This document shows positions 14,401 through 57,400 of a DNA stretch of 64,000 bases, one piece after another. Origin of the DNA: Craspedostauros australis (taxonomy: Eukaryota; Bacillariophyta; Bacillariophyceae; Mastogloiales; Achnanthaceae). The position numbers were made by a program, and so were the translations under genes. The notes below the pieces were generated by a model. It had not been told where the DNA came from, ran no database searches, and saw only the letters and a program-made list of their open reading frames with translations. Where the stretch lies: the NCBI GenBank assembly GCA_026770025.1, contig JAMXDE010000015.1, positions 682,001 through 746,000 on the forward strand. Direction: 5' to 3'. Each line of letters begins with the position of its first letter. Position 1 is the first letter of the stretch.

Positions 14401-14640
14401 GTCCGTGTGGACAACATCGGAGCGATCTTCATCGCCAAGAACCCATCAACATCCCAACGATCGCGGCACATCGACGTGCGCCATCACTACGTGAGGAATA
14501 TGGTAATCAACAAAACCATCGAAATCATTTTCGTCAAATCCGAGCAGAACACAAGCGACGGATTCACCAAGAACATCAAGGCCGACTTGCAACGTGAACA
14601 TGAGAAGTCGTACCTTGACACATCGAGAACATTCGAATGA
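8470..14640 (+). CDS. Gag-Pol polyprotein of copia element C
   Basis: A single 2,056-residue frame. Gag (residues 1 to about 450) ends in two CCHC knuckles, C-H-N-C-G-V-Y-G-H...C near 390 and C-N-Y-C-G-I-F-G-H...C near 435. A long acidic, low-complexity spacer follows (about 480-830), unusual in length between knuckles and protease. Then come protease (L-A-D-S-G-A near 835), GAG-pre (L-H-Q-M-L-G-H near 980), integrase core (about 1,030-1,200), a second acidic linker (about 1,300-1,500), reverse transcriptase with Y-V-D-D near 1,725, and RNase H (S-E-A-E-Y near 1,945). The order PR-INT-RT-RH defines Ty1/copia. Gag and Pol share one frame, so their ratio would depend on processing rather than frameshifting. 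Confidence 0.95.
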   Translation: MSEEEELKDIPLSNPAIKREEGASETPPRQEKEAAAATVLSGADASAIDETEEERSARLHRKEKRILKAIKQEETGVTKSIRTAKQGGKSETPPGGEFVTKTISAQQQAKIEESATQKPTEIKGASAPTTKQRTNMATSANMNKRRIKAPMFSGEQEDYSAWESQAKAYARAQKTRDVMLGKTKVPTMKEIAAAADEDKEAMEEIYELGCDCFSDLILMMDAEKGKGKQAIQYINQCISDDYPEGDAHAAWNVLAEKFRPSDAVTKIKLKRQFNNEKMKRDTDPDIYITQLESLRSRLHDVKYEITDEEMIMQILSTVSVEYKTHVVNLQHQLTFNPELVTINTIRGVLRTAYATHRGGKAYVDDFQDSNTKSNDTGFTSTGNFKGTCHNCGVYGHRSADCPERKKSNNKKNNNNNNKMNGKRNKGSGFKGKCNYCGIFGHREAECRKKKFNESKKNNEQANAATEGHDKSGHEMVLSAKDMPLCMLVSDDYIEDSFFDNFEYIGSDDEVQDDEIIPEWLSEEPIIHEVDPRREVSYECCFNAHDLIGSYGDETEMDEANDSDIEEAMSDDDDDDANEDGADEDDETNGGAAPPPPAAGNNRSGIFDEDDSDESEDGNHPDDSFNPNERVVYPGNIDFPPIEDPNRSNYLHRHDTIPYATETALVIQKQLIFDAVMEAGVSLFPGIERGVLRPIWVNMMGSILSENFRSIEEILANSVVINRILEAAETETIPETDLHYILGGCMRVLLRERPRVHPYDPATGSHRNSTIPSDYAQLPDDMDDGDHHPPYDEDGVHEDDDDGSFDDEIAAAAVEQLHELSTKYKDKVNKNTWLADSGASCHIVNSDAALFNVRYIKSFVQVGDSTKLDSPKMGSIRLKVKQRNNTGHVIRLDDVKYTPKMAVNLFSTNKALYNGYQLGNNGILMDIINGSGTKIVFDRVFPTSNGFITGVQMHPIMPTDDDKACTSIVKNPSKEISAVNLHQMLGHAPLETMKRTATQYRWKIIGEMPVCRDCAVANARVKNIPKATIPRATRRGERFFIDISYTKHISFGDKRYWTLIVDDCTDHCWSFFLKNKSDQPGYIKRFVQTIKSQTGDQQITFRGDNSGENKSTEDILIDAGLNVKFEYTASNTPQQNGRVERKFAYLYTKIRSMLNGAQLDEEYRHGLWAAAASTATAIANITVAKNQKESPHRQFFGNDPPYADALRTFGEVGVVKTTYGGITAKLKNRGEEMVFIGYAHQHASGVYNMYRPPTKSLICSRDIKWLNQSYGQFRGWAPAPNISNETGTTDADGFTTIGRKGATPRTATRQTSEAKRVSFADSNRYYILSDSDDEDNEDDGIVTQLIQNNEKDRSESNHEDDEILPSGDEADDEIGVTPPNTPGRSTHDTPSKSPPSKPSKRDIARKERIRRHEARGRKGETNPKSTTGKSIPRALRELADFNERGRKEEGYESDPSSNEASDELSDEMIDDSNNETTDDEEIEDKDEEIEITHHSTTGLYGMNAIITESPAIDIGLSMQDENKEPEKHIEPTTFNGAFNHPDPIHQKGYRAAIKKEFDSMDIRKVYSKIKRDAIPRGRRCCKCKWVFKLKRDGTHRARLVACGYSQVAGVDFQEHYSPVIHDVTYRVMMVTMLIKKMDCALVDVVTAFLHGDLDEEIYMNCPNGMDHQPDEALTLHKPIYGLVQSARQWFKMLVSTLKNINFEQSAADPCLFYRKTNEGSMIVAIYVDDCFCCGDSKALETFLKDIQGSKFKVTIERGLGDHLSCNIELNHDKTKATLRQPHLIRHLIKEFGTKVEKMQRYGTPGTPGQIIVQPSEDNGLQKVGPEEHAEYRRGVGMLLFLIKHSRPDIANPVRELSKVLIGPTKAAMKEMYRIIKYVIDTKDYGLKIHPARPDDDGWDMELFCDSEYAGDKNTRISVGGFILYLCKVPILWRSKAQKAVTLSSSEAEYVALSEAAKEIFFVMQLLESVGVPVKTPIKVRVDNIGAIFIAKNPSTSQRSRHIDVRHHYVRNMVINKTIEIIFVKSEQNTSDGFTKNIKADLQREHEKSYLDTSRTFE

Positions 14641-14660
14641 CCGAATGCACACAGGAAGGG

Positions 14661-15448
14661 TGTCGAGATGTACATGTGAGTATATGTCAAGATGTACGTG
14701 TATATGTGCATCGTTCACCCGTTATTCTCTCATACGCACTTGGACGGTATAACTACATTCGTGTCGATAGTATGCTGTGATTCGTCAGAATTACAGGGGA
14801 ATGGAACACATGAAAAGGGGCAAGATTTCTGGAGGAAATTTGCAAATAATGATTTCTGAGAGAATCAGAAGATCGTCCGTCCATGCATCAATGGTACCAA
14901 GAGAATCTCGAGGTACTTCCCAACTAAACCTCAGATGACAATATCATCTGACAGACTACTGCATCACCAATGGAACGTGACATCTGGAGAGCAGAAGGAC
15001 GCCTACTGACGTCGACAGGATGTCAACATGTCACCACGTCGACAGCTGTCTCCAAGTCAGAGCAGGAGGCGAAGATACGATGACCCATGAAGATCATGGA
15101 TACTGAAGGTGAACTTCAAATGGTAAGTACTCATGGAGTAGAAGCCAGTACTGAATGAACAGAGTGTCGAATGCGGAGTACGCATCAAACACGAAGGATC
15201 GTGTAGCACGAACACACGATGTTGAGAGAGAGAGAGAATACAGAGAGAAGCGAGAGAGGATCTCGCGTACCGACTCATAGTCGGAGACCGAATCTACGAA
15301 ACAGATTGAAGCGCCGAGAGCATCGGGCAAGAGAACGAACGGACACCGAGAGGATCGGAGTGCCAACGTAATGAAATAGCAAACAGACGACTATCAACCA
15401 ACACCATCTTCCACGATCGTAGGTTACCGTGAGCGGAACTTGCCAACA
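14661..15448 (+). repeat. 3' LTR of element C
   Basis: 788 bp; starts TGTCGAGATG 20 bases after the Gag-Pol stop and ends CCAACA. Its four extra bases relative to the 5' LTR fall in a GA-repeat tract. Confidence 0.95.
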
Positions 15449-15454
15449 CTCTCG

Positions 15455-15523: not shown

Positions 15524-15712
15524 TGAAAGAGTACTATCGAAAAATCACAAGGGGAGAGCAAAAGCAAAGCACCATGCCGGGATTCGAACCCGGAACCTCA
15601 GTGAGAATTACTGGTGCTCTACCGTTGAGCTACAGGCGTTGCGATTGCTGATCCGAACACAAGTGAAATTTACAGATAGTGGGGGCTACGGGAGTAACGT
15701 AATTTGCACTAT

Positions 15713-18771: not shown

Positions 18772-18974
18772 TCGCACTATCCGTGGGTCTTCTGTTTTAC
18801 TCGCCGTGTGACAGCCTTTCTAAGCGAGGGCATTGATTGTCCCAGCACCGCTTCCATGCATACATCTATCCACAGGCATCTGTGATCTGCCTGCTTTATC
18901 TGTATGCCTTTGTCCCAATTGCTGGCTCCTGCTCCTTCCACTCTCACTGCCACTGATGCAAATATACCATTGAT
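18772..18974 (-). pseudogene. Fragment of the buried minus-strand frame
   Basis: An open minus-strand segment of about 60 codons with a protein-like composition, cut on the right by the solo LTR at 18,975 and on the left by tRNA-like repeat copy 1. No family recognised. Confidence 0.4.
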
Positions 18975-19779
18975 TGTTGGCAAGTTCCGCTTACGGTAAC
19001 CTACGATCGTGGAAGATGGTGTTGGTTGATAGTTGTTCATTTGCTATTTCGTGACTTGGCTACTCTGATCCTCTCAGTGTACACCAGTTCTCTTGCCTGA
19101 TGCTCTCGGTGCTTCAATCTGTTTTGTAGATTTGGTCTCCAACTATGAGTTGGTATGCAAGATGCTCTCTCACTCCTCTCTGTACTCTCTCTCTCTCTCT
19201 CTGTCTCAGCATTGTGTACTTCGTGTTACGCAATACTCCGTGTTTGATGCATGCTCTGCATTTGACACTCTGTTCATTCAGTACTGGCTTCTACTCCATG
19301 AGTACTTACCATTTGAAGTTCATCTTCTGTATCCATGATCCTGATGCCCTTCGGTCATCGGATCTTTGTCTCCTGCTCTGACTTGGAGACAGATGTCGAC
19401 ATGGTGACACCATGACATCCTGTCGACGTCAGTAGGCATCCTTCTGCTCTCCAGATGTCACGTTCCATTGGTGATGCAGCAGTCTGTCAGATGATATTGT
19501 CATCTGAGGTTTAGTTGGGAAGTACCTTGAGATTCTCTTGGTACCATTGATGGATGGACGGACGAGATTTCCAATTCTCTCAGAAATCGTCGACTGCAAA
19601 TTTCCTCCAGAAAATCTGCTCATTTTCGTGTGTTCCATTTCCACTGTAATTCTGACGAATCACAGCATACTATCGACACGAATGTAGTTGTACCGTCCAA
19701 GTGCATATGAGAGAATAATGGGTGAACGATGCACATACACTCGTACATCTTGACATATTCACGCATGTACATCTCGACA
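18975..19779 (-). repeat. Solo LTR of the element C family, older copy
   Basis: About 805 bp, minus orientation, with the same termini (TGTCGAG...CCAACA) and overall sequence as the element C LTRs but visibly more diverged, including an expanded CT tract near 19,185-19,205. The five bases on either side (TTGAT and CTCGT) do not match, so the target duplication has decayed or the LTR arose by recombination between copies. Confidence 0.9.
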
Positions 19780-20727
19780 CTCGTCCTTGTCGTGCACCTC
19801 ATCCGGTTGGTCATCCATGTTGATGGCTTGTGTATCACACTGGACCGTCGGTGGTCTTTCTTCCATTCCCTGTTGTGTTCCTTGTCTGTCTGGTTTAAGT
19901 CTCGCGTTTTCTTCGCTCGTCGTTATCAGCATTCGTTGGAGATCCTCCTTCTGTTTCTGCATTGCTGCCATCATCGCTCTTGTCGTCCCTGTTGTTCGCC
20001 CTGTGCTCCCTGACAATGTCGAGGTCACCGACCCTTGCGCTTGTGCCTCCAATATCTTTCCCATCTGTCCCTGTAGGATTGCCAACTTTTGTCGTCGCGG
20101 TCCTGTGGTTTGCCTGCTTCCTCCTGTCAGCAACGACGTCACAGATTCTTCTTCTTCCCTTTTCTTCTGCGCCTTTTGTTGTTGTGCTGCCTTCGTTTCC
20201 CTGATTCTTCTCCATGCTTTCTTGTCTCTCATTGATGGATTGGTATCTTCTTCGCTGTAGTATTTCTCCTTCCTGACTCCGCTCTCGTATCATTCCTCCT
20301 CCTCGTCACTGGATACCTGCTCTGTTTTGTTTGTCAAGAAATGCATATCCTCATCCATCATCCTTGCTGCTTCCACTTCCTTGTCCTTCTCCAAGATCAT
20401 TCTTTTTGTTTTCTCGTCCCATCTCATCGTCTTCGCCTCAACTCGTGCCATCAATGTAAACACTCTTTCTACTTCGTTGCATTAGTCGGCTGTCAGCTTG
20501 ACCAGCAATCGTTTTGCTATCATCCTTGCCTTTGCTGTTTTGTCCAGGTGGAACTGAAGCACGTATCCATTACCTCTCCACTGTTTGTCAATCAATGCGA
20601 AGAGTGGGGTCTTAGTGTTGCCTGTCGTTGACTTGATCTTCATGATCATCTCTTGAAGTGTCAGGTGTGAGCCTTCTGGAATCTCCTGCAGGCACTCTGG
20701 GATGATGTTGTAGGTGGTCATTGCTAC

Positions 20728-20934
20728 TATCAGCACAAAACCGAATAGTGCTAAGAACGTTACTCCCGTAGCCCCCACTATCTATAAATTTCACTTGTGT
20801 TCGGATCAGCAATCGCATCGCCTGTAGCTCAACGGTAGAGCACCAGTAATTCTAACTGAGGTTCCGGGTTCGAATCCCGGCATGGTACTTTGCTTTTTGC
20901 TCTCCCCTTGTGATTTTTCGATAGTGCTCTTTCA
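20728..20934 (+). mobile_element. tRNA-like mobile repeat, copy 2 (uninterrupted)
   Basis: 207 bp from TATCAGCACAAA to ATAGTGCTCTTTCA, bounded by GCTAC on both sides (20,723-20,727 and 20,935-20,939). The tRNA-like core at about 20,818-20,888 has the A-box TAGCTCAACGG, the B-box GGTTCGAATCC, a CAGT/ACTG anticodon-type stem, and a TTTTT terminator 15 bases on. It sits inside the decayed minus-strand frame. The ends carry a short imperfect inverted match around AGCAC. There is no A-rich tail. Confidence 0.85.
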
Positions 20935-23540: not shown

Positions 23541-24225
23541 CTTTCTTTGATTTGTTTATTCGTGTTGTTTTGCTGTGACAATTTCTTCTGGAATTTTTGT
23601 TCCGTTTGGAAATTGTACACTGCTCCACTCATACTCTTTGCAAGGTGCGCGCACATGCTGTTGCGTAGCTACTTGGATCGCGGGTATGTTACAACGACTC
23701 GTGCGTAGACATGGTACTTTTTCAGGCGTTCAATTGAGAACCACCCATCAACCAAGATCGACTCACCACCACAAACTCAGAAGAAACCAGAACCCCAACC
23801 AAAGAGCGAAGGACATCGAAGAAGAGATCTCATTTGCAACGGGCATGAGTGGATGCGCAAACCGATCTCACATCGACCATGGCCATCCATCATTGATTGC
23901 TCCAGCAGCAAGGATACAGCGACGAGACACACCCGCACCTGTCAACGACAGCGCACGAGAATCCAAATTCCCAACGGTGCCATCTCGTGCAAGGGTCCTT
24001 TGGGACAACATCTTCGGACAGCTTGTCTGCGCCATCCATTCTTCCGATCCGCGTGAGAATTCTGCTAGAGCTTGGCTCCTGCTCGATTACCCCACGCACT
24101 CAATCGCAGTACAAGCTATTGTGCGAGAAGGAGTGTTCTACTCTATACTCGTACATCCGATGCGTTTACATCGCAAGAACGCCGGCCGCCGATCTGCTGG
24201 ATCCGCAAGGAGGAGATCTGCCTTC
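23541..24225 (+). other. Upstream region of the TrhO-methyltransferase gene
   Basis: About 685 bp between the repeat nest and the chosen start at 24,226. The reading frame of the gene stays open back to 23,575, but translated composition there is not protein-like and shows no domain, while a good leader peptide starts at 24,226. It is read as promoter and 5' leader. No clear TATA box was found. Confidence 0.5.
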
Positions 24226-27174
24226 ATGAGGCGAGGTTCGCTTTCGACCATCAGCGGCTGTGCTGTGTTCGTGGCATCCGTCACGATGATGACGAGCATG
24301 GCCACCATGGCAAGAAGCGTGGCTGCATGGCAAGGATCGCCGTTGCACACAACAGCAGCACGACGGCATCTCTTCGCCAACAAGATCTCGATTCTCCATG
24401 GTGCGCAGCATTCCAGGCAGCAAACACTCATTCCTTCAGCTGCTGCTGTTGCTGCTGCTCGTTTGCCGTGGGGTGCGTCCCTCTTCCAAACCGGAACCTC
24501 TAGCGATGCAGGCGGTGACAATGGAATAGCGGCGGTATCTGCATCTACGACGGCGTCAGGGACGAGCACTGCCACCACGAACCGAGTCCCGACCAACCAA
24601 GAAATCGTGGAGCGTCGGTTGGATGCAATCAAAGAAAAGCGGTTGGCCCGTCAGCAATCTTCGACGCAACGTCGTGAGCGCAACCTGCATCTCAAAAGGT
24701 TGCTACACACGCAATCAGGTGGTGCTGATTACGCTGTCCCTCCCCTGTACGCCGTCAAGGTGTGGGTCGCAGATGGCTTTCGCGATGAATTGAAATTGAC
24801 GGGACGGGAAAAGCGTGGCAGGGTATTCTTGGAACGCAGCAAGGTCCAGACCTTCCATGATCTCAAGGGTGAGATGCATGCTTTCTTCCGTGCCTTGCGC
24901 AAGGATACGTACCTGCTGGAGGCTAGCTTGCCGGTCGTCACGGAAGAGGGCACCATCCTGTCGCCGTCGGAATATGATGACGATGCGACCGAATCATGGC
25001 CGATTCGTACCGATGCGGACGTCGCGCGGGCGTTCCGGGCAGCAGATGACCTCTTCCAATCGAACACGACCAACTTGGTGCGTCCATCGATGGTCATTTC
25101 CGTCCTGGAGAATCCGGATGCTCCCAAACCTCCACCGATTCCATCGTATTTGGTGGATCTGCCCGATCCACAAGATGCCGAAACCATGACGATGATCTCC
25201 TTCTACAGCTTCCCACCGAACGGTGGCATCGACGACCCCGAGCAGTTTGCGGCACAGCTACGCAAGACATGGAAGCCATTCCATGCCCTCGGACGTGTTT
25301 ACGTGGCGCACGAAGGCGTCAATGCGCAGATGAGCATCCCATCGAACGTGCTGGACAACTTCATGGAATGCTGCCGATCCATACCGGAGCTCGAACACAT
25401 GGAGAATGACATCAACATCGATCCTAAACCATTGACTATGGAAGAGTTCGCAGTGGCTGGCGTTCCCAACCGTGGCAAACCAGCGCCGCCGTTCCGCAAT
25501 TTGCACGTTCGGGTGCGTCATCAGGTGGTCGCGGATGGGTTGGACAAGTCTTTGGATTGGCAGTCGGCCGGGTACGATATGCCGCCGCTGGAGTGGCATG
25601 AGACTCTGAAGCAGGCGAGCCAACGCGCGAATGAAAAATCTGGCTCGAATGCAACCGCGAGTGCGGACGCTTTGGACGCCCCGCCCATTGTGCTGGACTG
25701 CCGCAACACGTACGAAACGGATGTCGGTATTTTCGATGGAGCCGAGCCGCTGAACACTGACAACTTCCGAGATTCATGGGATGTCCTGAAGGAACGGCTG
25801 GCGGATACACCGAAAGATGCCCCTATCATGACGTACTGCACGGGCGGCATCCGCTGCGTCAAGGTGGGAGCCTACCTGACGCAGGAGATGGGCTTCACCA
25901 ACGTGTCGCGATTGGCGGGTGGCATCATCGCCTACGACCGCACGGTCTCGCAGGAGGTTCCAGACGAAGAATCCATGTTCAAGGGCACGAACTTCGTCTT
26001 CGATGGTCGGCTGGGCCGCAGCATCACAGATGATTCCCTCGCCGTTTGCATCACATGCGGCGGGCAGACTTCGTTGGTGAGCAACTGTCGCAATGACAAT
26101 TGCCACAAGCGCATGGTCCAGTGCGAGCGCTGCCGCACAGACTTCATGGGCACATGCTCCGACGCATGCCGCACCCGCGTCATTAACGGTGCCATGGCTC
26201 CACGTCGTGGGACGCCAGGTGGCGGCGTTTCCGGTGAGGAAGACGATTCGCAAGATCTGGATTCTTCCAGCGGCGAGACAATATCCACAACAACGTACGA
26301 TTCCATCGACGACTACAGCATCGGCCATTCCACGTCTGCGCCATGCTTGTTCTCTGAAATGGAGCTCAACACGAGAGCCTTCTTTCCTTCGGGTGCCCAC
26401 ATGGTGTCCGGCGAATCGCAAGGACGGTTTCTGACCCAGCTCACCGCCATGGCACGCGAAGGCCGCGTGCTGGAATTGGGAACGTTCAGCGGATACGCGA
26501 CGGCGTGCTTTTGGGAAGGTGCGCGCGATGCCGGTGCCGCGATGCAAACCACAGGAAACAAGGATCATGGTCCGTACATTTTGACGATGGAACGGGATCG
26601 ACGCGCCTTTCAGCTGGCCCATGCGCAGCTGAAGGTGATTGGTGAGCAGGGCATGGAGGGCGCTGCGAAGGAGATGGCAGCTTTGCGTGATGATCCTTCG
26701 TCGCTGCCGGAGTTGCAAGACACCAAGATCACGCTGCCGCCGTTGGATGGCGTTGCTGCATGCGATATGTGGCATGTGACGGATGCCCTTGCCACCGTCG
26801 AAGAATTGGCCGCGGGCAAAGGTGGGGATGACCAACCCGCACCATTCGACATTGTCTTTGTCGATGCCGACAAAACGCGGCTGTTGGATTACGTCGAGGC
26901 CTGCCTGGCCAACGACAACGTGCTGAAGAAGGGTGGCATGATTTTGGTCGACAACGTACTGTGGAAAGGCCTCGTGCTGGAGGCAAGCCAGGGAAGCTTC
27001 ACCTCCGTCGCGGACACGCACGATGCCGGGAAGGAAGAGCTGCGCAAGAATCGACGCGCGCGTAAACTGGCAACGCAGATGCATCGATTCAACGAGGCCA
27101 TCGCCAAAGATGAACGGGTGGATGTGCAATTGTTTCCCATCCGCGATGGTCTCAGCATGATACGGAAGAAGTAG
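24226..27174 (+). CDS. Fusion of TrhO-type tRNA U34 hydroxylase and TrmR-like O-methyltransferase
   Basis: A 982-residue protein. Residues 1-36 form a hydrophobic leader ending in a V-A-A-W site like the diatom plastid cleavage motif. About 140-290 is an unassigned domain. From 323 comes a TrhO (YceA/UPF0176) N-domain, then a rhodanese domain with the catalytic loop Y-C-T-G-G-I-R-C (Cys538) and the family's C-terminal Cys cluster (608 to about 650). After a Ser/Asp linker, 713-982 is a class I SAM-dependent O-methyltransferase of family 3: motif I V-L-E-L-G-T-F-S-G (748), V-D-A-D-K (about 875-880), D-N-V-L-W-K-G (909). In bacteria TrhO makes ho5U34 in tRNA and TrmR methylates it to mo5U34. 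A plastid role is inferred. The Met at 24,226 was chosen because it begins the leader; the frame is open further upstream. Confidence 0.88.
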   Translation: MRRGSLSTISGCAVFVASVTMMTSMATMARSVAAWQGSPLHTTAARRHLFANKISILHGAQHSRQQTLIPSAAAVAAARLPWGASLFQTGTSSDAGGDNGIAAVSASTTASGTSTATTNRVPTNQEIVERRLDAIKEKRLARQQSSTQRRERNLHLKRLLHTQSGGADYAVPPLYAVKVWVADGFRDELKLTGREKRGRVFLERSKVQTFHDLKGEMHAFFRALRKDTYLLEASLPVVTEEGTILSPSEYDDDATESWPIRTDADVARAFRAADDLFQSNTTNLVRPSMVISVLENPDAPKPPPIPSYLVDLPDPQDAETMTMISFYSFPPNGGIDDPEQFAAQLRKTWKPFHALGRVYVAHEGVNAQMSIPSNVLDNFMECCRSIPELEHMENDINIDPKPLTMEEFAVAGVPNRGKPAPPFRNLHVRVRHQVVADGLDKSLDWQSAGYDMPPLEWHETLKQASQRANEKSGSNATASADALDAPPIVLDCRNTYETDVGIFDGAEPLNTDNFRDSWDVLKERLADTPKDAPIMTYCTGGIRCVKVGAYLTQEMGFTNVSRLAGGIIAYDRTVSQEVPDEESMFKGTNFVFDGRLGRSITDDSLAVCITCGGQTSLVSNCRNDNCHKRMVQCERCRTDFMGTCSDACRTRVINGAMAPRRGTPGGGVSGEEDDSQDLDSSSGETISTTTYDSIDDYSIGHSTSAPCLFSEMELNTRAFFPSGAHMVSGESQGRFLTQLTAMAREGRVLELGTFSGYATACFWEGARDAGAAMQTTGNKDHGPYILTMERDRRAFQLAHAQLKVIGEQGMEGAAKEMAALRDDPSSLPELQDTKITLPPLDGVAACDMWHVTDALATVEELAAGKGGDDQPAPFDIVFVDADKTRLLDYVEACLANDNVLKKGGMILVDNVLWKGLVLEASQGSFTSVADTHDAGKEELRKNRRARKLATQMHRFNEAIAKDERVDVQLFPIRDGLSMIRKK

Positions 27175-43450: not shown

Positions 43451-44896
43451 CTAGTATTTGGTCCCGGTCGTGGAGGCCTTGGAGAAGAAATCGCGTGCGG
43501 CGCGTTCCTGCTTCGAACGTCGCACGCGTTCAATCAGGTTGCGATAGAAGTGCATGCCGCAGAAGAAGGCCCCCGTGACCCCGCCTGCCACCAGCACATC
43601 CGATGCGCGTCCGCGTGCGCGCCGTTTGGACAGAAGGATGGAGGACAGCGCGCAGAACCCGGCAAGGAAGCAACCGTTCTCGACCAGCTCCATGTTCCGA
43701 ATGTCGGCGACGTCCTTGGTCTCGACACCTTGCCCGAACAGCCGGCCCGTCCGCAGATCCATGTAGGTGGTGACATTGCGCAGGGTGAGGCTGATGCGCG
43801 GCATCGTGCTGTCCTCGTTGGCCAGGATGGAGTGCGTGAAGCGCTTGTTCGTCTTGGGTCCCATCACGAGCATGGAGCCGTGCGGCAGGCGGATGCGGGT
43901 GATGTCGCGCGGTTCGGCACGGCGTCGCAATTCCAGGATGCGCTCGTCGCCGAGACTGACGCTGACGATGACGCTGGCATGATTCAGATCCAGATCCTTG
44001 TCGCTGTGGTGTGCGATGTGATCCTTGCCATCACGATAAAAGTTGGTGACGCAGTGGTTCATGGTCTGATGCACGAGCGGTTGCAATCGCTTCTCGACTT
44101 GCGCCTTGACCCTCTTCGTAGTGGGGCTCCAATCGAACGTATCCCACTCGTCGCCTTGGTAGTTGCCGGGGTATCGGTACACGGGAATGATGGCGCCGTT
44201 CTCGAGCGAGGTAGCTTGCAGGTTCTGCAACCGCGGCAGCTCCTCTCCCTTGGCACCCTGGAAGCCATCGAAGTTGAGCTCGTGGATGAGCTTGGAGACC
44301 AGCAGGAACCTGGTGTCGGGCGCGGTCTCCTCGATGACGTTGAGGATGAGCTCCGCATCGCCAGCGGCGATTCCGTAGAGATCCTTCGTGATGGCGGACT
44401 GCGTGAGATCGTAGTGCATCGGCGTCGTCGCGCCATGGAACTGGCGGTGCAAGGCCAACCGCGTCACCGCAGCGTAGCATTGCGACAGCCGCCCGCACGT
44501 GACACCCAGCAGCTGGTCTCCAAAGTAGCGCACGACGCCGACAGCCAGAATGGCGCCACCCGGCTGCTCCAAGATCGTCGCCTTGATGGCCGGCAGCACC
44601 GAATTCTCCGGTTCTCCATCTTCGGACCATTTGCAGACGACGTCGGGCTGGCGCTTCAGTGCCACGACGGGCACATGCGCGGCATCGGGGTGCTGGGCCT
44701 TGAGGATCTTCTGGAGGACGAAGGCGTCGTCGAGGGCGCGGCAATCCATGCAGTAGGCGATGAACCTGGAATCGGCGACTTCGATTTCTGCGAGAGGGAC
44801 GGCCTGTTCGGTGGCAGAACTTGCATCCGGCGAGGCCGCTGTTGGAGACAGTGCGCGGGATGCGGGAGGTTCGGGCGCGGAAGGAGTGGATCCCAT
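43451..44896 (-). CDS. UPF0029/IMPACT domain fused to an AlkB-type Fe(II)/2OG dioxygenase
   Basis: 481 residues from the Met at 44,896; the frame extends 86 codons upstream through a tandem repeat that looks untranslated. Residues 38-155 are a UPF0029 (YigZ/IMPACT N-terminal) domain: S-R-F-I-A-Y-C, D-D-A-F, E-D-G-E-P, and V-V-R-Y-F-G-D-Q-L-L-G. About 190-375 is an AlkB dioxygenase: N-F-Y-R-D-G (285-290), Fe ligands H297-S-D299 and H355, 2-oxoglutarate arginine R367 with R373 (R-x5-R). AlkB proteins remove alkyl groups from nucleic acids by oxidation. Two hydrophobic stretches (about 405-425 and 433-450) near the C-terminus suggest membrane attachment, unusual for AlkB. Substrate and location are unknown. 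Confidence 0.88.
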   Translation of the reverse strand: MGSTPSAPEPPASRALSPTAASPDASSATEQAVPLAEIEVADSRFIAYCMDCRALDDAFVLQKILKAQHPDAAHVPVVALKRQPDVVCKWSEDGEPENSVLPAIKATILEQPGGAILAVGVVRYFGDQLLGVTCGRLSQCYAAVTRLALHRQFHGATTPMHYDLTQSAITKDLYGIAAGDAELILNVIEETAPDTRFLLVSKLIHELNFDGFQGAKGEELPRLQNLQATSLENGAIIPVYRYPGNYQGDEWDTFDWSPTTKRVKAQVEKRLQPLVHQTMNHCVTNFYRDGKDHIAHHSDKDLDLNHASVIVSVSLGDERILELRRRAEPRDITRIRLPHGSMLVMGPKTNKRFTHSILANEDSTMPRISLTLRNVTTYMDLRTGRLFGQGVETKDVADIRNMELVENGCFLAGFCALSSILLSKRRARGRASDVLVAGGVTGAFFCGMHFYRNLIERVRRSKQERAARDFFSKASTTGTKY

Positions 44897-45417
44897 GTTG
44901 GCGCTGTGTTCACCGTTCAGAGATGTGAATGTGGGTGTGAATGTGGGTGTGAATGTGATGGTGGTGTTGCGACAATTCCGTTTGTGTGTTGGGACGTGTT
45001 GTTCCTTTTGTGGATTCATGGAACGGATCCATGGAATGGATCCATGCAGAACGATCTGATCTCTGGTTGTTCCGTTGGTGCGCGAAGTTCGCCTCCTCTC
45101 CGGCACAAAGAGAGAGAATCCTTGTTCTGTGTTGCGAGGATTCTTTTCTTTCACGTTTGGTCTTTCGCGTTTGAGTCACGACCAATGACCATCGCTCTTG
45201 TTTGTCCGAGTCATGTCAACGGCCACAGTGCCAATGGCCGCCACCACCCAACGCACCAAAGAGCCGCACAACGGTTCACAACACTCACATTGCGGCCACT
45301 TGGACAGGACATTCGACTTCCAATGGAACAATAGAATAACAGAGCAGAACAGAGCAGAGCACTCTTGGGCGATACACCACCTGCGCATCCCATTGCGACT
45401 CAAAACCAAACGAAACG
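44897..45417. promoter_or_regulatory. Shared bidirectional promoter region
   Basis: 521 bp between the divergent starts of the AlkB fusion (minus) and the NXPE-like gene (plus). It includes a 12-bp tandem repeat, GTGAATGTGGGT, three times at 44,924-44,959, just upstream of the AlkB-fusion start, and a palindrome-rich stretch near 45,018-45,045 (GGATCCATGGAATGGATCC). No TATA box was identified with confidence. Confidence 0.5.
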
Positions 45418-48228: not shown

Positions 48229-49236
48229 GAACAGTCGGAGCAGTCCCAGTGTTCTTTTTGACGGCTCGATCAGCGAGTCGGATGGTGGTGGGCAGTTCAC
48301 TGGTGAGTTGATTCGGTCATTCGCTTATTTATTCATGGTCTGGTTGCTGGCCCAGTTGCTTAGTTGCGGATGTCTATCACCATGGATGGACGGGTCCGTT
48401 GCGATTCGGAATCGGTCTTGATGGCTGGACAGATGAGCAGGATGGAACGAAATGGAGTCGACTCCCTGCCTCCTTCTTTGTGGACGATCTGATGCCGGAC
48501 GATGACGACGACCCAAGGCATCCGTTTAGTAGACAATCATTATTACAATTATGTATGATGAGTACATTATTCTAGTAGAATACATGACACTCTGCTCGTA
48601 CGAGCCTATTCTATGCATGGAAGAAGCGTTGCGCGAGCAAAGTTCAAGTCATGCTATGCTTTGTTCAGCTTACGAGCCTTCCACACAAGTATAAGTATAA
48701 TGTAATGTAATGTAATAGTAATCTGCAACAGAAGAGCAGAGCCTGGATGTGTCGTGCAAGTGCTCGAACTCCATTCTTCTCCACATCTTGTTCCTGTCCA
48801 ACATGGACCCGAACAAACAGATGATCTTCACGAAGGAGCATTCTGCTTGACACGATCCCTGGCTTCGACACCAAAAGCAGATGTTGGCAGCTCCGTGAAT
48901 GATTTCATTTGTGGAGATTTAATGCTGAACTTTTGGCGGAAGCATGAAGATCCAAAAAAGATTCTTGCCTCTGAAACCAACCACCACTTCTTGTTGATGT
49001 GAACATCCGACGAAATTGCGCCACATCCGTCGTGGATCTTATCGGCAAAGCTGTCGGACAGAGCATGCGCACATGGCAAGAGTCGGATGTCTCACAATCC
49101 GCACACCTGATGATCTGCATGGCATTATTGTACATCATAGAATATTATATTGAATAAAATAATACGTCATTGTAGACACAACATCCATTCCAAGCGCAAC
49201 AGCAGACGCATCAAGCAAGAGGAAGGAAGATCCACA
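48229..49236. other. Intergenic, no gene seen
   Basis: 1 kb between the ClpS-like and ABC transporter genes. TA-rich stretches lie near 48,530-48,590 and 48,690-48,720. AT-rich ATTATATTGAATAAAATAATACG at 49,144-49,166 is a plausible core promoter for the transporter. The small open frames present have no protein-like features. Confidence 0.45.
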
Positions 49237-51186
49237 ATGGCACAACAGCGCTCGCATCTCTCATTGGAGGATGACTACCATGCTCATCACCGCTTCCTCC
49301 CTCAGAACGAGGAATTGGTGCATGTCTCCACGCCCCTTCTTCTGCTGTCCATGACGCCACTCATCCTCGTTGCGTTCGTGTCGTACTCCATGAATCTGCA
49401 CTTGGAATCGGCCATCCTCACGGGTGCTGTCCGGACCTTCATCCAGCTCTCCATCCTGGGGTTCATCTTGGAACCCATCTTCCGCGAAGGGACAGAGCAC
49501 TGGTACATCGTCATCCTCTACTGTCTCTTCATGGTCCTCCTCGCAAGCTACGAGGCCTCCAAACGATCCAAGTACACCTTCCGCGGCATGTTCGTCTTCG
49601 TGCTGCTCAATCTCCTCTCCAACGTCTCCGTCGTCTCCATCTTCGCTTTCGGCGTCATCATCCGACCCCAGCCAGTGTGGGAACCGCAGTACGTCATCCC
49701 CATCGTCGGCATGCTGCTGGGCAACTGCATCAACGGCGTCTCCTTGGCCCTCAACAACATGCTCACCTTGCTGCGAGAGGGATCTAACGAAATCGACCTC
49801 CACCTCGCCTTCGGTGCCACGCCCTGGGAGGCCACAGCCCGATTCATGATGGAATCCGTGCGCACCGGCGCCATGCCGCAGCTCAACAGCATGGCGATCA
49901 TCGGCATCATCAGCATTCCCGGCATGATGACGGGACAGATCTTGGGCGGGGCCTCCGTCGGCGATGCCGCGCGATACCAGATGCTCATCATGTACTTCAT
50001 CGCGGTCTGCGCCTTCGGCACGATCATGGTCGAAGTCTTCGTCGCGGTGTGGGTCTGCTTCGATCGGAAGACCTCCATGCTGCGATCGCGCGAGCGGCTC
50101 ATCCAAATGGATGGCAAGAAGGGCGCCGTGGCGTCGCTGTTGACCTCCCTCGTTGCGGGCGTGTGGCGGCTGGTCACGCAGGGTCGTTTGCTATCGTCAT
50201 CACAATCCAAGCACTCTTCGTCGGCGCTCGTCATCACCGGGAGTACCGTGTCAGAAACGACGTACCTCATGGCGGAATCGCAATCCGAAGTGCAGGCACA
50301 ACCATCTACACGGATACGCATCGAGACGGTCGTCAATCCTTCATTCAGCAGCGACAACAATGACGACGGCGACGCAGTTGCGCAGAAGCAAGCGCCTTCC
50401 TCCACGCCTGTGCTCACGATCGACAATTTCTCCAAATCGTTCAAGCGACCGAGTGCGATACACGCGGTTGCATCGTCTGCAACAAACGGAGCACCCAACA
50501 CCAGCCTGATTCGCGACCCAACCTATTCTAACGGCATCAACAACAACGACGACGACGCAGCATCCATCCTGTTTCAGGGTCTGTCGTGCACGCTGAGATC
50601 GCGTGAGGTGGCCATCATCACGGGACCCAGCGGAAGCGGCAAGTCCACCTTCTTGCGCATGGTGGCAGGCCTTGCATCCGCCGATGATGGCACCATCCGT
50701 CTCGACGGACTCGCGCGCAACAGCATGGACTGGACCGTTTGGAGGTACCATGTGCGGTACGTGCCCCAAAGCAGCGTCACCATTCCGGGCACGCCCAAGC
50801 AGTTCTTGCACAAGGTGCACAACCTGTCGGTGCGCAAGAAAGTGCAAGCGTCGCCATCCTCCGCGTCGTCGTCATCCATGACGTTCATCGACTTGGTGGA
50901 CAGCACCATAAACTACCTGCAAGAATGGAACATGGCACCCGACAGCATCGACAAAGAGTGGTCCATCCTGTCGGGCGGCGAAGGACAGCGCATGCTGCTG
51001 GCCATCGCGTTGGCATCCCAACCGCGCGTGCTGCTGTTGGATGAAAGCACGTCCGCGTTGGATATCCCCACGAAGCTGCTGGTGGAACAAACCATCGTCC
51101 GCGCGTGTCAAGAGACGGGGCTGTGCACGCTGTGGATCTCTCATGACGACGAACAGATCGATCGATTGCGAACGTTGGGCCAGTGA
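49237..51186 (+). CDS. FetB-FetA type ABC transporter in a single chain
   Basis: 649 residues from the Met at 49,237 (an in-frame Met at 49,150 gives an unconvincing 29-residue extension). Residues about 25-280 are a FetB/YbbM (UPF0014) permease with about seven hydrophobic helices and family motifs (G-A-V-R-T-F-I-Q-L near 65, G-M-L-L-G-N near 160, I-S-I-P-G-M-M-T-G-Q near 225). A low-complexity linker (about 310-445) joins an ABC ATPase: Walker A G-P-S-G-S-G-K-S-T (463-471), signature L-S-G-G-E-G-Q-R (578-585), Walker B V-L-L-L-D-E (598-603), and the switch His in I-S-H-D. In E. coli fetA and fetB are separate genes linked to iron export; the plant relatives STAR1/STAR2 act in aluminium tolerance. 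Metal or substrate here is unknown. Confidence 0.92.
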   Translation: MAQQRSHLSLEDDYHAHHRFLPQNEELVHVSTPLLLLSMTPLILVAFVSYSMNLHLESAILTGAVRTFIQLSILGFILEPIFREGTEHWYIVILYCLFMVLLASYEASKRSKYTFRGMFVFVLLNLLSNVSVVSIFAFGVIIRPQPVWEPQYVIPIVGMLLGNCINGVSLALNNMLTLLREGSNEIDLHLAFGATPWEATARFMMESVRTGAMPQLNSMAIIGIISIPGMMTGQILGGASVGDAARYQMLIMYFIAVCAFGTIMVEVFVAVWVCFDRKTSMLRSRERLIQMDGKKGAVASLLTSLVAGVWRLVTQGRLLSSSQSKHSSSALVITGSTVSETTYLMAESQSEVQAQPSTRIRIETVVNPSFSSDNNDDGDAVAQKQAPSSTPVLTIDNFSKSFKRPSAIHAVASSATNGAPNTSLIRDPTYSNGINNNDDDAASILFQGLSCTLRSREVAIITGPSGSGKSTFLRMVAGLASADDGTIRLDGLARNSMDWTVWRYHVRYVPQSSVTIPGTPKQFLHKVHNLSVRKKVQASPSSASSSSMTFIDLVDSTINYLQEWNMAPDSIDKEWSILSGGEGQRMLLAIALASQPRVLLLDESTSALDIPTKLLVEQTIVRACQETGLCTLWISHDDEQIDRLRTLGQ

Positions 51187-54430: not shown

Positions 54431-57400
54431 ATGGGCGAGAAAAAGTCCCAATACGTCTTCATCCGAGATCCAGAGTACGCCTGGATCCCTGCCCAGACAG
54501 TCGACGACGATGGCAAGAAAGCCCAAGTCCGCGTGCCACAGTACCCTGACGAGCAGTCCATCGTCTGCGATGGAGGAGCCTCTGCCGCCAAGTTCGAGGA
54601 CGACGAGGTCCCCCTCAAGGACTACAACCGCGGTGTCTTGCCGATGCAGAATGTGGACGGATCTGGAAACCTGCGCGCCTTCCCAGACATGGTGGAGCTT
54701 CCTTTCTTGCACGAGGTAAGATTGATGCATACAAAGACTCATGTATATATGCAGGGATGGACATCATGCGGTGCCATGTGCTATTTCAAAGCATACAACA
54801 TCATGGAGCAAGATGTAATGTGATATGATCCGGAATCATGTGGTGCAACATCATGCAGCAAGATGCGATGCCCGGTCATTCTCCAATTGGCGAAGGTGTG
54901 CGAAGCCAATCGGACCATGGGTAGCACATGAATGACTTCAGCATCCGTGCACCATGCTTCCACGATGGTGAATGGACTTTGCATGCCATTGTGCCCTTCA
55001 TTTCCACCCATCATCATCATTGTCATCATCGTTGTCATCATCATCATGATCTCACAACATTCCCCACCTATAATCACAACCACAACCACAACAACCACGC
55101 ATACCAACACCCATATCAACACCACTTGCCATGACAGCCCGCCATTCTGTTCAACTTGAAGGAACGTCACGGAAGTGGAAAGCCATACACCCGTACCGGT
55201 GATATCATCATCGCCGTGAACCCATTCCAATGGTTCAAGGAGATCTACACCGAGAAGGTCCGAAACCGCTACGCACGCATCTTGGTCTGGGAGAACGTCG
55301 ACGGAGACCAGCGCAGCCAGGTCGAGCCGCACGTGTACGAGACCTCCGCATTGGCCTACAACGGTTTGGCCTTCGGTGGCAACGACCAGTCCATCCTGGT
55401 GTCCGGAGAGTCCGGCGCAGGAAAGACCGAGACCGTCAAGATCTGCATGAACCACATCGCCTCCTGCCAGCAGGGACCAACCGCCAAGGGCGGCGGCAAC
55501 AACGTCGTCGTCAACCGCGTCCTCGAGTCCAACCCCTTGCTCGAGGCCTTCGGTAACGCCAAGACCCGCCGTAACGACAACTCCTCCCGATTCGGAAAGT
55601 ACTGTCAGCTCCAGTTCGACATGGGCACCAAGGCCGAGCAGGAGTTCCGTGGCCGCGACAAGGCCACCTGCGTCCTCGCCGGATCCAAGTGCGATGTCTA
55701 CCTCCTCGAGAAGAATCGCGTCGTCATGCACGACCCTGAGGAGCGTACCTACCACATCTTCTACCAGATCATCGCCTCCAAGCACAAGACCAAGTACTGG
55801 TCCCACCTCGCCGGCACCACCAACGAGTCCTTCAGATTCGTCGGAAAGGCCCCCACCGACACCATCGAGGGAATGAAGGACGGTGATCACTTCAACGAGA
55901 CTGTCAAGGTCCTCGAGAAGGTCGGCGTCAAGGACGACAACCTCATGACCTTGATGCAGGCCATCATCATCGTGCTGCAGATCGGTAACCTCACCTTCGG
56001 ACCTGATCCAAAGGACGACGAGCGTTCCGTGGTCACCTCCACCAAGGACTTTGCCGCCCTGTCCGAGATCATGTGCGTCCCAGAGGAGGCCATGGAGTGC
56101 AGCTTCACCGAGCGTACCATGAAGACCCGTAACGAAACCTACAAGGTCCCGCTCAACGCCACCGTCGCCAAGGAATCCGCCGAGGCCTTCGCCAAGGAGA
56201 TCTACGGCCGTCTCTTCCTCTGGCTGGTGCGCGCCATCAACGACGCCACCTCCGCCGAGCTCAACTACAAGTCCGGACTCATGGAACACTTCGGTGTCAT
56301 CGGACTCCTTGATATCTTCGGTTTCGAGTCCTTCGTCCGCAACCGCTTCGAGCAGCTCTGTATCAACTACGCCAACGAGAAGCTCCAGGCCAAGTTCACC
56401 GAGGATATCTTCCGCTCCGTCCAGGACGAGTACGAGAAGGAGGGCATTCCGTTGGATGAGATCAAGTACGATGACAACACCGACGTGTTGGACCTCATCG
56501 AAGGAAAGACCGGTCTCCTGGCCATGCTCAACGAGGAGTGCGTCCGACCAAAGGGAACCGACCAAGCCTTCGTCACCAAGGCCCTCGCCGCCAACAAGCA
56601 ATCCCCGTGCCTCTTCCCCAACAAGGTCAACCGCATGGGATTCGGTATCCATCACTACGCCGGAAAGGTCATGTACGATGCCGAGGAGTTCGTCATCCGT
56701 AACCAGGACACCCTCCCAACCGATCTGTCCGACCTCGCCAGTCTGTGCTCCAACGAGATCATCGCCAAGCACATGACCAACGACTCTTGCACCAACTTCG
56801 AGAGCAAGACCAAGTCCGCCCAGGTCGCCAAGAAGGCCCCACCGAAGCGCGCCAAGTCCAACCTCGTCGCCGCCACCGTGTGGGCCAAGTACAAGACCCA
56901 GCTCATGTCGCTGATGAATATGCTCAAGACCACCGAGTCCAAGTACATCCGTTGCATCAAGCCAAACGCCCCGAAGAAGCCGCTGCTCATGCAGCACCTC
57001 AGCACCATCGAGCAGCTCCGTTGCGCCGGAGTGGTCGCCGCCGTGACCCTGTCGCGTTCGGCCTTCCCCAACAGACTCGAGAACTCCGTCGTTCGATTCA
57101 AGTTTTGGCAGATGTGGGACAAGGAGAAGTACCCATCGGAGGGCACGGCTAGCATGTCGCCAGAGGAGAAGCTCACCTGGGACTGCAGGGCCCTGCTCAA
57201 GTGCGCCCTCGCGCCTTTGGCCGAGAACGATCCAAAGACCGGCAAGCCAGTCACCGTGTTCGTCTGCGGTAAGACCCGATCTTACTTCAAGATGGGAGCG
57301 CTAGAGTACCTTGAATCTCACCGCTCCGCCGGCCTCGAGGTCCACGCCATCCAGATGCAGCGTCTCGCCCGTGGCTTCCTCACCCGCAAGCGCCTCCGCG

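What the first reader, a model, noticed from the sequence alone, without database searches (positions are those of the whole stretch)
24226..27174. Single-chain TrhO-TrmR fusion: candidate complete mo5U34 pathway in a plastid
The rhodanese-type hydroxylase signature (Y-C-T-G-G-I-R-C and the following Cys cluster) and a family-3 O-methyltransferase are in one frame. In bacteria TrhO makes 5-hydroxyuridine at tRNA position 34, and TrmR of Bacillus subtilis methylates it to 5-methoxyuridine, as separate proteins. Their fusion here links the two steps directly and supports the methyltransferase acting on ho5U. The N-terminal leader with an A-A-W site suggests plastid import, where wobble expansion would matter for a reduced tRNA set. 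I know of no description of this modification in diatom plastids.
Basis: partly seen in the sequence, partly recalled or inferred. Interest (0 to 1): 0.92.

Follow-up and report, generated by a model that had tools for sequence, protein, structure and literature searches.

The report
Fused two-step tRNA wobble-uridine enzyme
One gene carries, in a single protein chain, an enzyme that adds an oxygen to a key tRNA base and a second enzyme that probably caps that oxygen with a methyl group; such fusions were already noted in a diatom and two water moulds, but this makes it a testable candidate for an unidentified modification in chloroplast tRNAs.

Summary
One open frame (24226-27174, 982 aa; start uncertain) encodes a TrhO-type tRNA U34 hydroxylase followed by a family-3 O-methyltransferase. 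The TrhO half groups with E. coli TrhO (100/99) and keeps the four loop residues essential there. The methyltransferase keeps the metal and lysine positions, but its best tree position is with an uncharacterised Bacteroidota clade, not Bacillota TrmR; the TrmR position is not rejected (AU p 0.22). It carries a TrmR-like basic substrate loop, the most basic stretch of the protein, which its nearest relatives lack. In 118 Bacteroidota genomes this methyltransferase tracks TrhO (61 both, 10/6 one only, 41 neither). I conclude that it is probably a single-chain ho5U-to-mo5U34 synthase that works like TrhO plus TrmR, without filing the second half as TrmR. The fusion is not new: Sakai et al. 2019 report it in Phaeodactylum tricornutum and two Phytophthora species. 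Phytophthora lacks a plastid, so plastid specificity does not follow. The leader looks like an organelle presequence, but does not decide between plastid and mitochondrion and lacks coding signal. Chloroplast tRNAs for Pro, Ala, Val (perhaps Ser, Thr) carry an unidentified U34 modification; this gene gives a testable candidate.

The parts
24226..27174 (+). Single open frame, 982 aa: leader - extra N-terminal region - TrhO - linker - O-methyltransferase (start codon uncertain)
24226..24504 (+). Leader aa 1-93 with no acidic residue; hydrophobic segment aa 9-19 (Kyte-Doolittle 2.18), then SVAA/WQGSP and a basic stretch; organelle presequence-like, but without coding signal
   Evidence: no targeting program available
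24727..25179 (+). aa 168-318, extra region upstream of the TrhO domains; single-sequence model beta-alpha-beta-beta-alpha-beta at low confidence (pLDDT 55.7); no Pfam/NCBIfam family, no fold match at E <= 0.001
25189..25527 (+). UPF0176_N acylphosphatase-like domain of TrhO; R429 and R431 align with K112 and R114 of E. coli TrhO
25666..25935 (+). Rhodanese domain of TrhO
25837..25854 (+). Active-site loop C538-T-G-G-I-R543 (E. coli C200-R205)
25981..26172 (+). Rhodanese_C domain with the cysteine cluster that aligns with that of E. coli and Bacteroidota TrhO
26191..26337 (+). Linker aa 656-704, rich in Gly/Ser/Thr/Asp, in frame, no stop; nearly all under pLDDT 50 in the model
26338..27171 (+). 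Family-3 (class I, metal-dependent) O-methyltransferase, about aa 705-982
26863..26874 (+). D880-A-D-K883: metal-ligand position D880 and catalytic-lysine position K883 (roles recalled from COMT)
   Evidence: D880 and K883 invariant in the 20 rows of alignment A3
26950..26955 (+). D909-N910 metal-ligand positions (roles recalled from COMT)
   Evidence: D invariant, N in at least 90% of rows
27040..27090 (+). Basic segment aa 939-955 in the substrate insertion loop, net +7 over 16 residues, TrmR-like

Best explanation
A nucleus-encoded, organelle-imported bifunctional enzyme that modifies U34 of the tRNAs reading four-codon (NYN-type) boxes. Step 1: the TrhO half uses O2 and its CTGGIR loop to make 5-hydroxyuridine (residues conserved: shown; activity: inferred from E. 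coli TrhO). Step 2: the metal-dependent O-methyltransferase half moves a methyl group from SAM to the 5-hydroxyl, giving 5-methoxyuridine (active-site residues conserved: shown; substrate: inferred from the fusion, the TrmR-like basic loop and the TrhO co-occurrence). A flexible linker tethers the two active sites so that ho5U can be capped on the same tRNA (inferred). Compartment: an organelle (inferred from the leader), plastid favoured if the host is photosynthetic, mitochondrion not excluded.
For: Domain order and single frame. TrhO half in one 10-row clade with E. coli TrhO and eight other bacterial sequences, 100/99; essential E. coli residues C200, T201, G203, R205 conserved, K112 and R114 both Arg; best solved match is TrhO 9j5o, B. 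subtilis, bound to tRNA-Ala. Methyltransferase metal and Lys positions kept. Basic loop: 7 K/R in the 16 residues before a fixed alignment column; 17 of 23 rows of the TrmR clade have 5 or more, 0 of 48 other rows do; the most basic 16-mers of the whole protein lie here although the half is net -11. The closest methyltransferase clade tracks TrhO in 118 Bacteroidota genomes: 61/10/6/41, Fisher 6e-16; among the 89 genomes with a COX1 match under 1e-120, 59/10/6/14, P 4e-6. Literature: the same fusion named in three species (PMC6599085, passages).
Against: Best trees place the methyltransferase outside the TrmR clade; it lacks the TrmR DAAK motif. HMM scores: Bacteroidota group 138.5 bits, SynOMT group 99.3, TrmR group 76.0. 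NCBIfam TrhO score 158.6 is under the 170 cut-off. 6 of 15 Bacteroidota genomes with neither TrhO nor a U32 match still have such a methyltransferase, so the group must have other substrates too, and the Fisher tests ignore kinship. No methyltransferase in the flanks (up to 4 kb) of 80 bacterial TrhO loci. The leader has no coding signal. A chloroplast review says xo5U derivatives were not found in Chlamydomonas by mass spectrometry (PMC8877259, passages).
Confidence: 0.62

Rival explanations
1. The chemistry is as proposed but the site is the mitochondrion (or both organelles), an ancestral stramenopile trait and not a plastid adaptation.
For: Sakai et al. 2019 report the fusion in two Phytophthora species, which have no plastid (general knowledge). 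The leader has no acidic residue in 93 aa and is basic, as mitochondrial presequences are; in-frame starts at 24286-24307 would remove most of the hydrophobic segment.
Against: From the 24226 or 24160 start the leader has a hydrophobic core followed by SVAA/W, the shape of a diatom bipartite plastid signal (motif recalled, not computed with a targeting program).
Confidence: 0.35
2. The methyltransferase half acts on something other than ho5U in tRNA (a catechol-like or other small molecule, or a different RNA site); the fusion is not a mo5U synthase.
For: Sequence and fold neighbours are Leptospira OMT, SafC, SynOMT, PaMTH1 and CCoAOMT rather than TrmR; DADK motif; 6 of 15 genomes without TrhO or U32 keep a relative. 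The authors of PMC6543040 (passages) found no significant activity of TrmR on free ho5U or of Rv0187 on ho5U-tRNA, so relatives differ in substrate.
Against: Fusion to a tRNA U34 hydroxylase, the basic TrmR-like loop and co-occurrence of its clade with TrhO.
Confidence: 0.25
3. Two genes or two transcripts: the linker hides an intron, start or assembly error, so the halves are separate proteins.
For: No transcript data; only one locus seen.
Against: No stop over 982 codons, in-frame coding signal through the linker, and the same kind of fusion reported in three other genomes.
Confidence: 0.04

Closest known systems
TrhO-TrmR (yceA-trmR) gene fusions of Phaeodactylum tricornutum, Phytophthora sojae and P. 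ramorum (Sakai et al. 2019, PMC6599085, passages)
   Same: The same two enzyme types fused as one gene, in stramenopiles
   Different: Those sequences are not held here and were not compared; in the passages I read they serve only as a clue to yceA function. The methyltransferase lineage, leader and extra N-terminal region are described here for this locus only
E. coli TrhO (YceA; sequence taken from an E. coli plasmid record annotated trhO, L156)
   Same: UPF0176_N + Rhodanese + Rhodanese_C region, four essential loop residues, cysteine cluster, one clade 100/99
   Different: The E. coli protein (350 aa) has no leader, no extra region and no methyltransferase; the window protein is on a very long branch; K112 is Arg here
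B. subtilis TrmR (YrrM), tRNA ho5U methyltransferase
   Same: Methyltransf_3 fold, metal and Lys positions, basic insertion-loop segment
   Different: TrmR is a separate protein, often beside a U32 (TrhP-type) gene in its clade; DAAKGQ against DADKTR; different best-tree clade; the loop here is 46 residues against a mean of 28 in that clade, and there are further inserts
Bacteroidota O-methyltransferase clade (uncharacterised; e.g. Bacteroides finegoldii WP_007747759.1)
   Same: Closest sequences found (up to 38% identity), MxSGxxQGR motif, co-occurs with TrhO
   Different: Stand-alone, loop neutral or acidic on average, substrate unknown

Membership tests
TrhO (tRNA U34 hydroxylase) | UPF0176_N, Rhodanese and Rhodanese_C in this order over Pfam cut-offs | tested here: met
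TrhO (tRNA U34 hydroxylase) | Loop residues essential in E. coli (C200, T201, G203, R205) and basic residues at K112/R114 | tested here: met
   C538, T539, G541, R543; R429 (a K-to-R change), R431
TrhO (tRNA U34 hydroxylase) | Groups with a biochemically proven TrhO | tested here: met
   10-row clade with E. coli TrhO, 100/99; long branch 3.06; no cyanobacterial or other eukaryotic TrhO in the tree
TrhO (tRNA U34 hydroxylase) | Score over the NCBIfam NF001133 equivalog cut-off (a model threshold, not a biological trait) | tested here: not met
   158.6 against 170 bits; membership is therefore claimed at subfamily level from tree and residues
TrhO (tRNA U34 hydroxylase) | O2-dependent ho5U34 formation | not testable with these tools
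   needs biochemistry
TrmR (tRNA ho5U methyltransferase) | Methyltransf_3 fold with metal-ligand and catalytic-Lys positions | tested here: met
TrmR (tRNA ho5U methyltransferase) | DAAK/DANK motif of the TrmR clade (23 of 23 rows of that clade) | tested here: not met
   window DADK; 43 of 48 non-TrmR rows also DADK
TrmR (tRNA ho5U methyltransferase) | Placement in the clade of B. subtilis TrmR and U32-adjacent loci | tested here: inconclusive
   best trees place it elsewhere (98/91 and 99/95 for the Bacteroidota set), but the TrmR placement is not rejected (AU p 0.223)
TrmR (tRNA ho5U methyltransferase) | Basic insertion loop | tested here: met
   ordering of the TrmR loop on substrate binding from PMC6543040, passages
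TrmR (tRNA ho5U methyltransferase) | Methylates ho5U34 in tRNA | not testable with these tools
   needs biochemistry; not filed as TrmR
Plastid-targeted protein | Signal peptide plus transit peptide with cleavage motif | tested here: inconclusive
   hydropathy and charge only; start codon uncertain; no coding signal over the leader

The most novel reading that the evidence does not exclude
The protein is imported into the plastid and, as a single chain, makes 5-methoxyuridine at U34 of plastid tRNAs for Pro, Ala, Val, Ser and Thr, thus explaining in ochrophytes the long-unidentified U34 modification of chloroplast tRNAs; and its methyltransferase half reveals a second tRNA ho5U methyltransferase lineage outside the Bacillota TrmR clade, the Bacteroidota clade that co-occurs with TrhO.
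Probability: 0.22. Interest if true: 0.75.

Novelty: new member of a known kind. Interest (0 to 1): 0.45.

Why it matters
A 2022 review (PMC8877259, passages) states that U34 of chloroplast tRNAs for Pro, Ala, Val and possibly Ser and Thr carries a modification whose nature is unidentified, while each of these tRNAs reads a whole codon box. Bacterial xo5U34 is made on tRNAs for NYN codons (PMC6599085, passages), the same kind. A leader-bearing single-chain TrhO-methyltransferase gives a concrete candidate that can be knocked out in a model diatom. The Bacteroidota co-occurrence also points to an unassigned bacterial ho5U methyltransferase.

Tried and rejected
Bacterial fusion or gene pair as ancestor: no methyltransferase match in the flanks held (up to 4 kb a side, shorter at contig ends) of 80 TrhO loci; matching frames listed from 247 genomes of the phylum of G001 (Bacteroidota by its record title), 85 of them with a match, are 352 aa or shorter. 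Viral contigs: two scans, no relatives. U32 (TrhP type) as the partner of this methyltransferase in Bacteroidota: negatively associated (27 both, 44 MT only, 34 U32 only, 13 neither). Respiration alone as cause of the co-occurrence: COX1 is in 109 of 118 genomes, and the association remains among the 89 with COX1 under 1e-120 (59/10/6/14). The rbfA neighbour of the Bacteroides methyltransferase gave no tblastn hit in the 75 loci L081-L155, 70 of which come from methyltransferase searches; these loci are mostly 3-3.6 kb and rbfA is short, so this is a weak negative, but I built nothing on it. Extra N-terminal region: no Pfam or NCBIfam hit, low-confidence model, no fold match at E <= 0.001. A common Bacteroidota donor for both halves: the TrhO half groups as well with E. 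coli, order unresolved, so not claimed. Searches for a description of mo5U or of the fusion in diatoms or plastids: (open-licence PMC only; mostly listings seen); among what I read only Sakai 2019 describes the fusion. The NAR 2018 TrmR paper is not held. After checking, one figure was changed: the probability of the novel case went from 0.25 to 0.22 because the leader shows no coding signal.

Full report
What is there. The frame 24226-27174 (+) translates without an internal stop into 982 aa. Pfam finds UPF0176_N, Rhodanese, Rhodanese_C and Methyltransf_3 in this order, each over its cut-off. The NCBIfam TrhO model scores 158.6 bits, just under its curated 170. Codon usage favours this frame over its +1 and +2 frames in every block from 24475 to the stop, linker included. 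It does not favour the frame from 23575 to 24474, which holds the upstream extension and the leader itself (the codon table includes this gene). Several in-frame ATGs make the true start uncertain. The neighbourhood is eukaryotic nuclear DNA with copia-type elements, a DDE_Tnp_1_7 transposase (piggyBac type, recalled), a myosin and a KAT11/bromodomain protein. No whole genome is held, and I could not test that the host is a diatom.

The hydroxylase half. In a 44-row tree it sits in a 10-row clade with E. coli TrhO, seven Bacteroidota sequences and one Myxococcota sequence (100/99), apart from the Bacillota type. The order inside is unresolved (holding the window with the seven Bacteroidota rows, AU p 0.155; with E. 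coli alone, 0.195) and the window branch is very long (3.06). The residues that Sakai et al. found essential in E. coli TrhO (C200, T201, G203, R205; PMC6599085, passages) are C538, T539, G541 and R543 here; K112 and R114, needed for activity and thought to bind tRNA, are R429 and R431. The cysteine cluster is kept. The best structural match of the AlphaFold2 model (aa 316-982; mean pLDDT 72.7, pTM 0.52) is B. subtilis TrhO bound to tRNA-Ala, 9j5o.

The methyltransferase half. The metal-ligand and lysine positions D880, K883, D909 and N910 are kept (roles recalled from COMT). By phmmer against the PDB it scores highest with Leptospira OMT (72 bits), SynOMT (66) and PaMTH1 (58); COMTD1 has 49.6, CCoAOMT about 43 and TrmR 29. 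By fold, too, Leptospira OMT, SafC, PaMTH1 and CCoAOMT come before tRNA-bound TrmR 5zw4, which is at rank 35 of all matches. Trees of 74 and 72 rows put it with a Bacteroidota clade (98/91 and 99/95) and outside the clade of B. subtilis TrmR and U32-adjacent Bacillota loci. A motif MxSGxxQGR is shared with that clade. Cautions: the window branch is long (1.8-2.0) and pairs with another long branch (L090, 91/39). Holding it together with the TrmR clade costs 11.8 log units and is not rejected (AU p 0.223). The Bacteroidota rows were mostly chosen as best hits in that phylum, while other phyla came in only through PDB chains, Bacillota genomes and a few plasmid hits; CCoAOMT and COMT were not in the trees. 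Group HMMs score it 138.5 (Bacteroidota, 27 rows), 99.3 (SynOMT/SafC, 8), 76.0 (TrmR, 30) and 69.8 (B. cereus type, 10) bits. Its motif is DADK; the TrmR clade has DAAK in 21 and DANK in 2 of 23 rows, while 43 of 48 other rows have DADK. I therefore do not call it TrmR.

Why it may still work like TrmR. The insertion loop before the last helix, which becomes ordered on substrate binding in TrmR (PMC6543040, passages), carries KNRRARK here. Counting K/R in the 16 residues before a fixed alignment column gives 7 for the window; 17 of 23 TrmR-clade rows have 5 or more, and 0 of 48 other rows do. The most basic 16-mers of the whole protein (net +7) lie here although this half is net -11. Second, in 118 Bacteroidota genomes the clade's profile (A2, E <= 1e-25) and TrhO (UPF0176_N, E <= 1e-6) go together: 61 both, 10 methyltransferase only, 6 TrhO only, 41 neither (Fisher 6e-16). 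With only the 50 genomes whose best match exceeds 170 bits counted as having it, the counts are 44/6/23/45 (2e-9). Among the 89 genomes with a COX1 match under 1e-120 they are 59/10/6/14 (4e-6). The tests do not correct for kinship. Six of 15 genomes with neither TrhO nor U32 still have a relative, so not every member can be a ho5U enzyme. No such methyltransferase was found in the flanks (up to 4 kb) of 80 TrhO loci.

Localisation. From 24226 the leader has a hydrophobic core (aa 9-19), then SVAA/WQGSP and a basic stretch, with the first acidic residue at aa 94. That fits a bipartite plastid signal (recalled), but a shorter start gives a mitochondrial-looking leader, the stretch has no coding signal, and no predictor was available. 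Sakai et al. name the same fusion in two Phytophthora species, which have no plastid (general knowledge). So organelle import is likely but inferred, and plastid import is unproven.

What is known. Sakai et al. 2019 (PMC6599085, passages) already state that yceA is fused with trmR in Phytophthora sojae, P. ramorum and Phaeodactylum tricornutum (they call them bacterial species). They also say that trhO homologues are widespread in eukaryotes, which suggests xo5U-type modification there. A coconut survey lists ho5U34 with two TrhO homologues, one predicted chloroplastic and one nuclear (PMC10298058, passages). A review of chloroplast tRNA modifications reports an unidentified U34 modification in tRNAs for Pro, Ala, Val and possibly Ser and Thr, different from cmo5U, and says that xo5U derivatives were not found in Chlamydomonas (PMC8877259, passages). 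I found no description of mo5U in a plastid in ten searches of open-licence PMC (listed under Tried and rejected).

Verdict. Novelty: a new member of a known kind, with a methyltransferase of unexpected lineage. Interest 0.45, because it turns the open question of the plastid U34 modification into a direct test; not higher, because the fusion was already described and the substrate and compartment are inferred.

Noticed in passing
window 49150-51186 (+): UPF0014 (FetB-like, recalled) membrane domain and ABC ATPase fused in one frame: a single-chain version of what I recall as a two-gene bacterial transporter.
   Followed up: no
window 43451-45154 (-): UPF0029 domain fused to a 2OG-Fe(II) oxygenase domain (AlkB type, recalled).
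   Followed up: no
window 15575-15634 (-) and 20823-20882 (+): Two near-identical tRNA-like sequences (Rfam tRNA, 35 bits each; neither called by ARAGORN) in a 153-nt inverted repeat, 95% complementary, on either side of a DDE_Tnp_1_7 transposase frame.
   Followed up: partly
window 14653-15451 and 18972-19787: About 800-bp inverted repeat (88% identity over 817 columns) starting just after the end of the copia-type element frame at 14640; probably LTR copies.
   Followed up: partly
window 55618-55689 (-): ARAGORN tRNA-Asp call inside the myosin motor frame, not found by Rfam at the gathering threshold: probably false.
   Followed up: partly
genomes G037, G069, G080, G119 (unnamed, phylum of G001): The matched parts of TrhO and of a U32 (TrhP-type) gene lie about 0.9 to 2.2 kb apart: the two alternative ho5U hydroxylases as neighbours.
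   Followed up: no
L159:2489-3472: Bacteroides finegoldii (plasmid record): the methyltransferase relative lies between pyruvate kinase and rbfA, a ribosome-binding factor gene; no rbfA hit at the other loci tested.
   Followed up: partly
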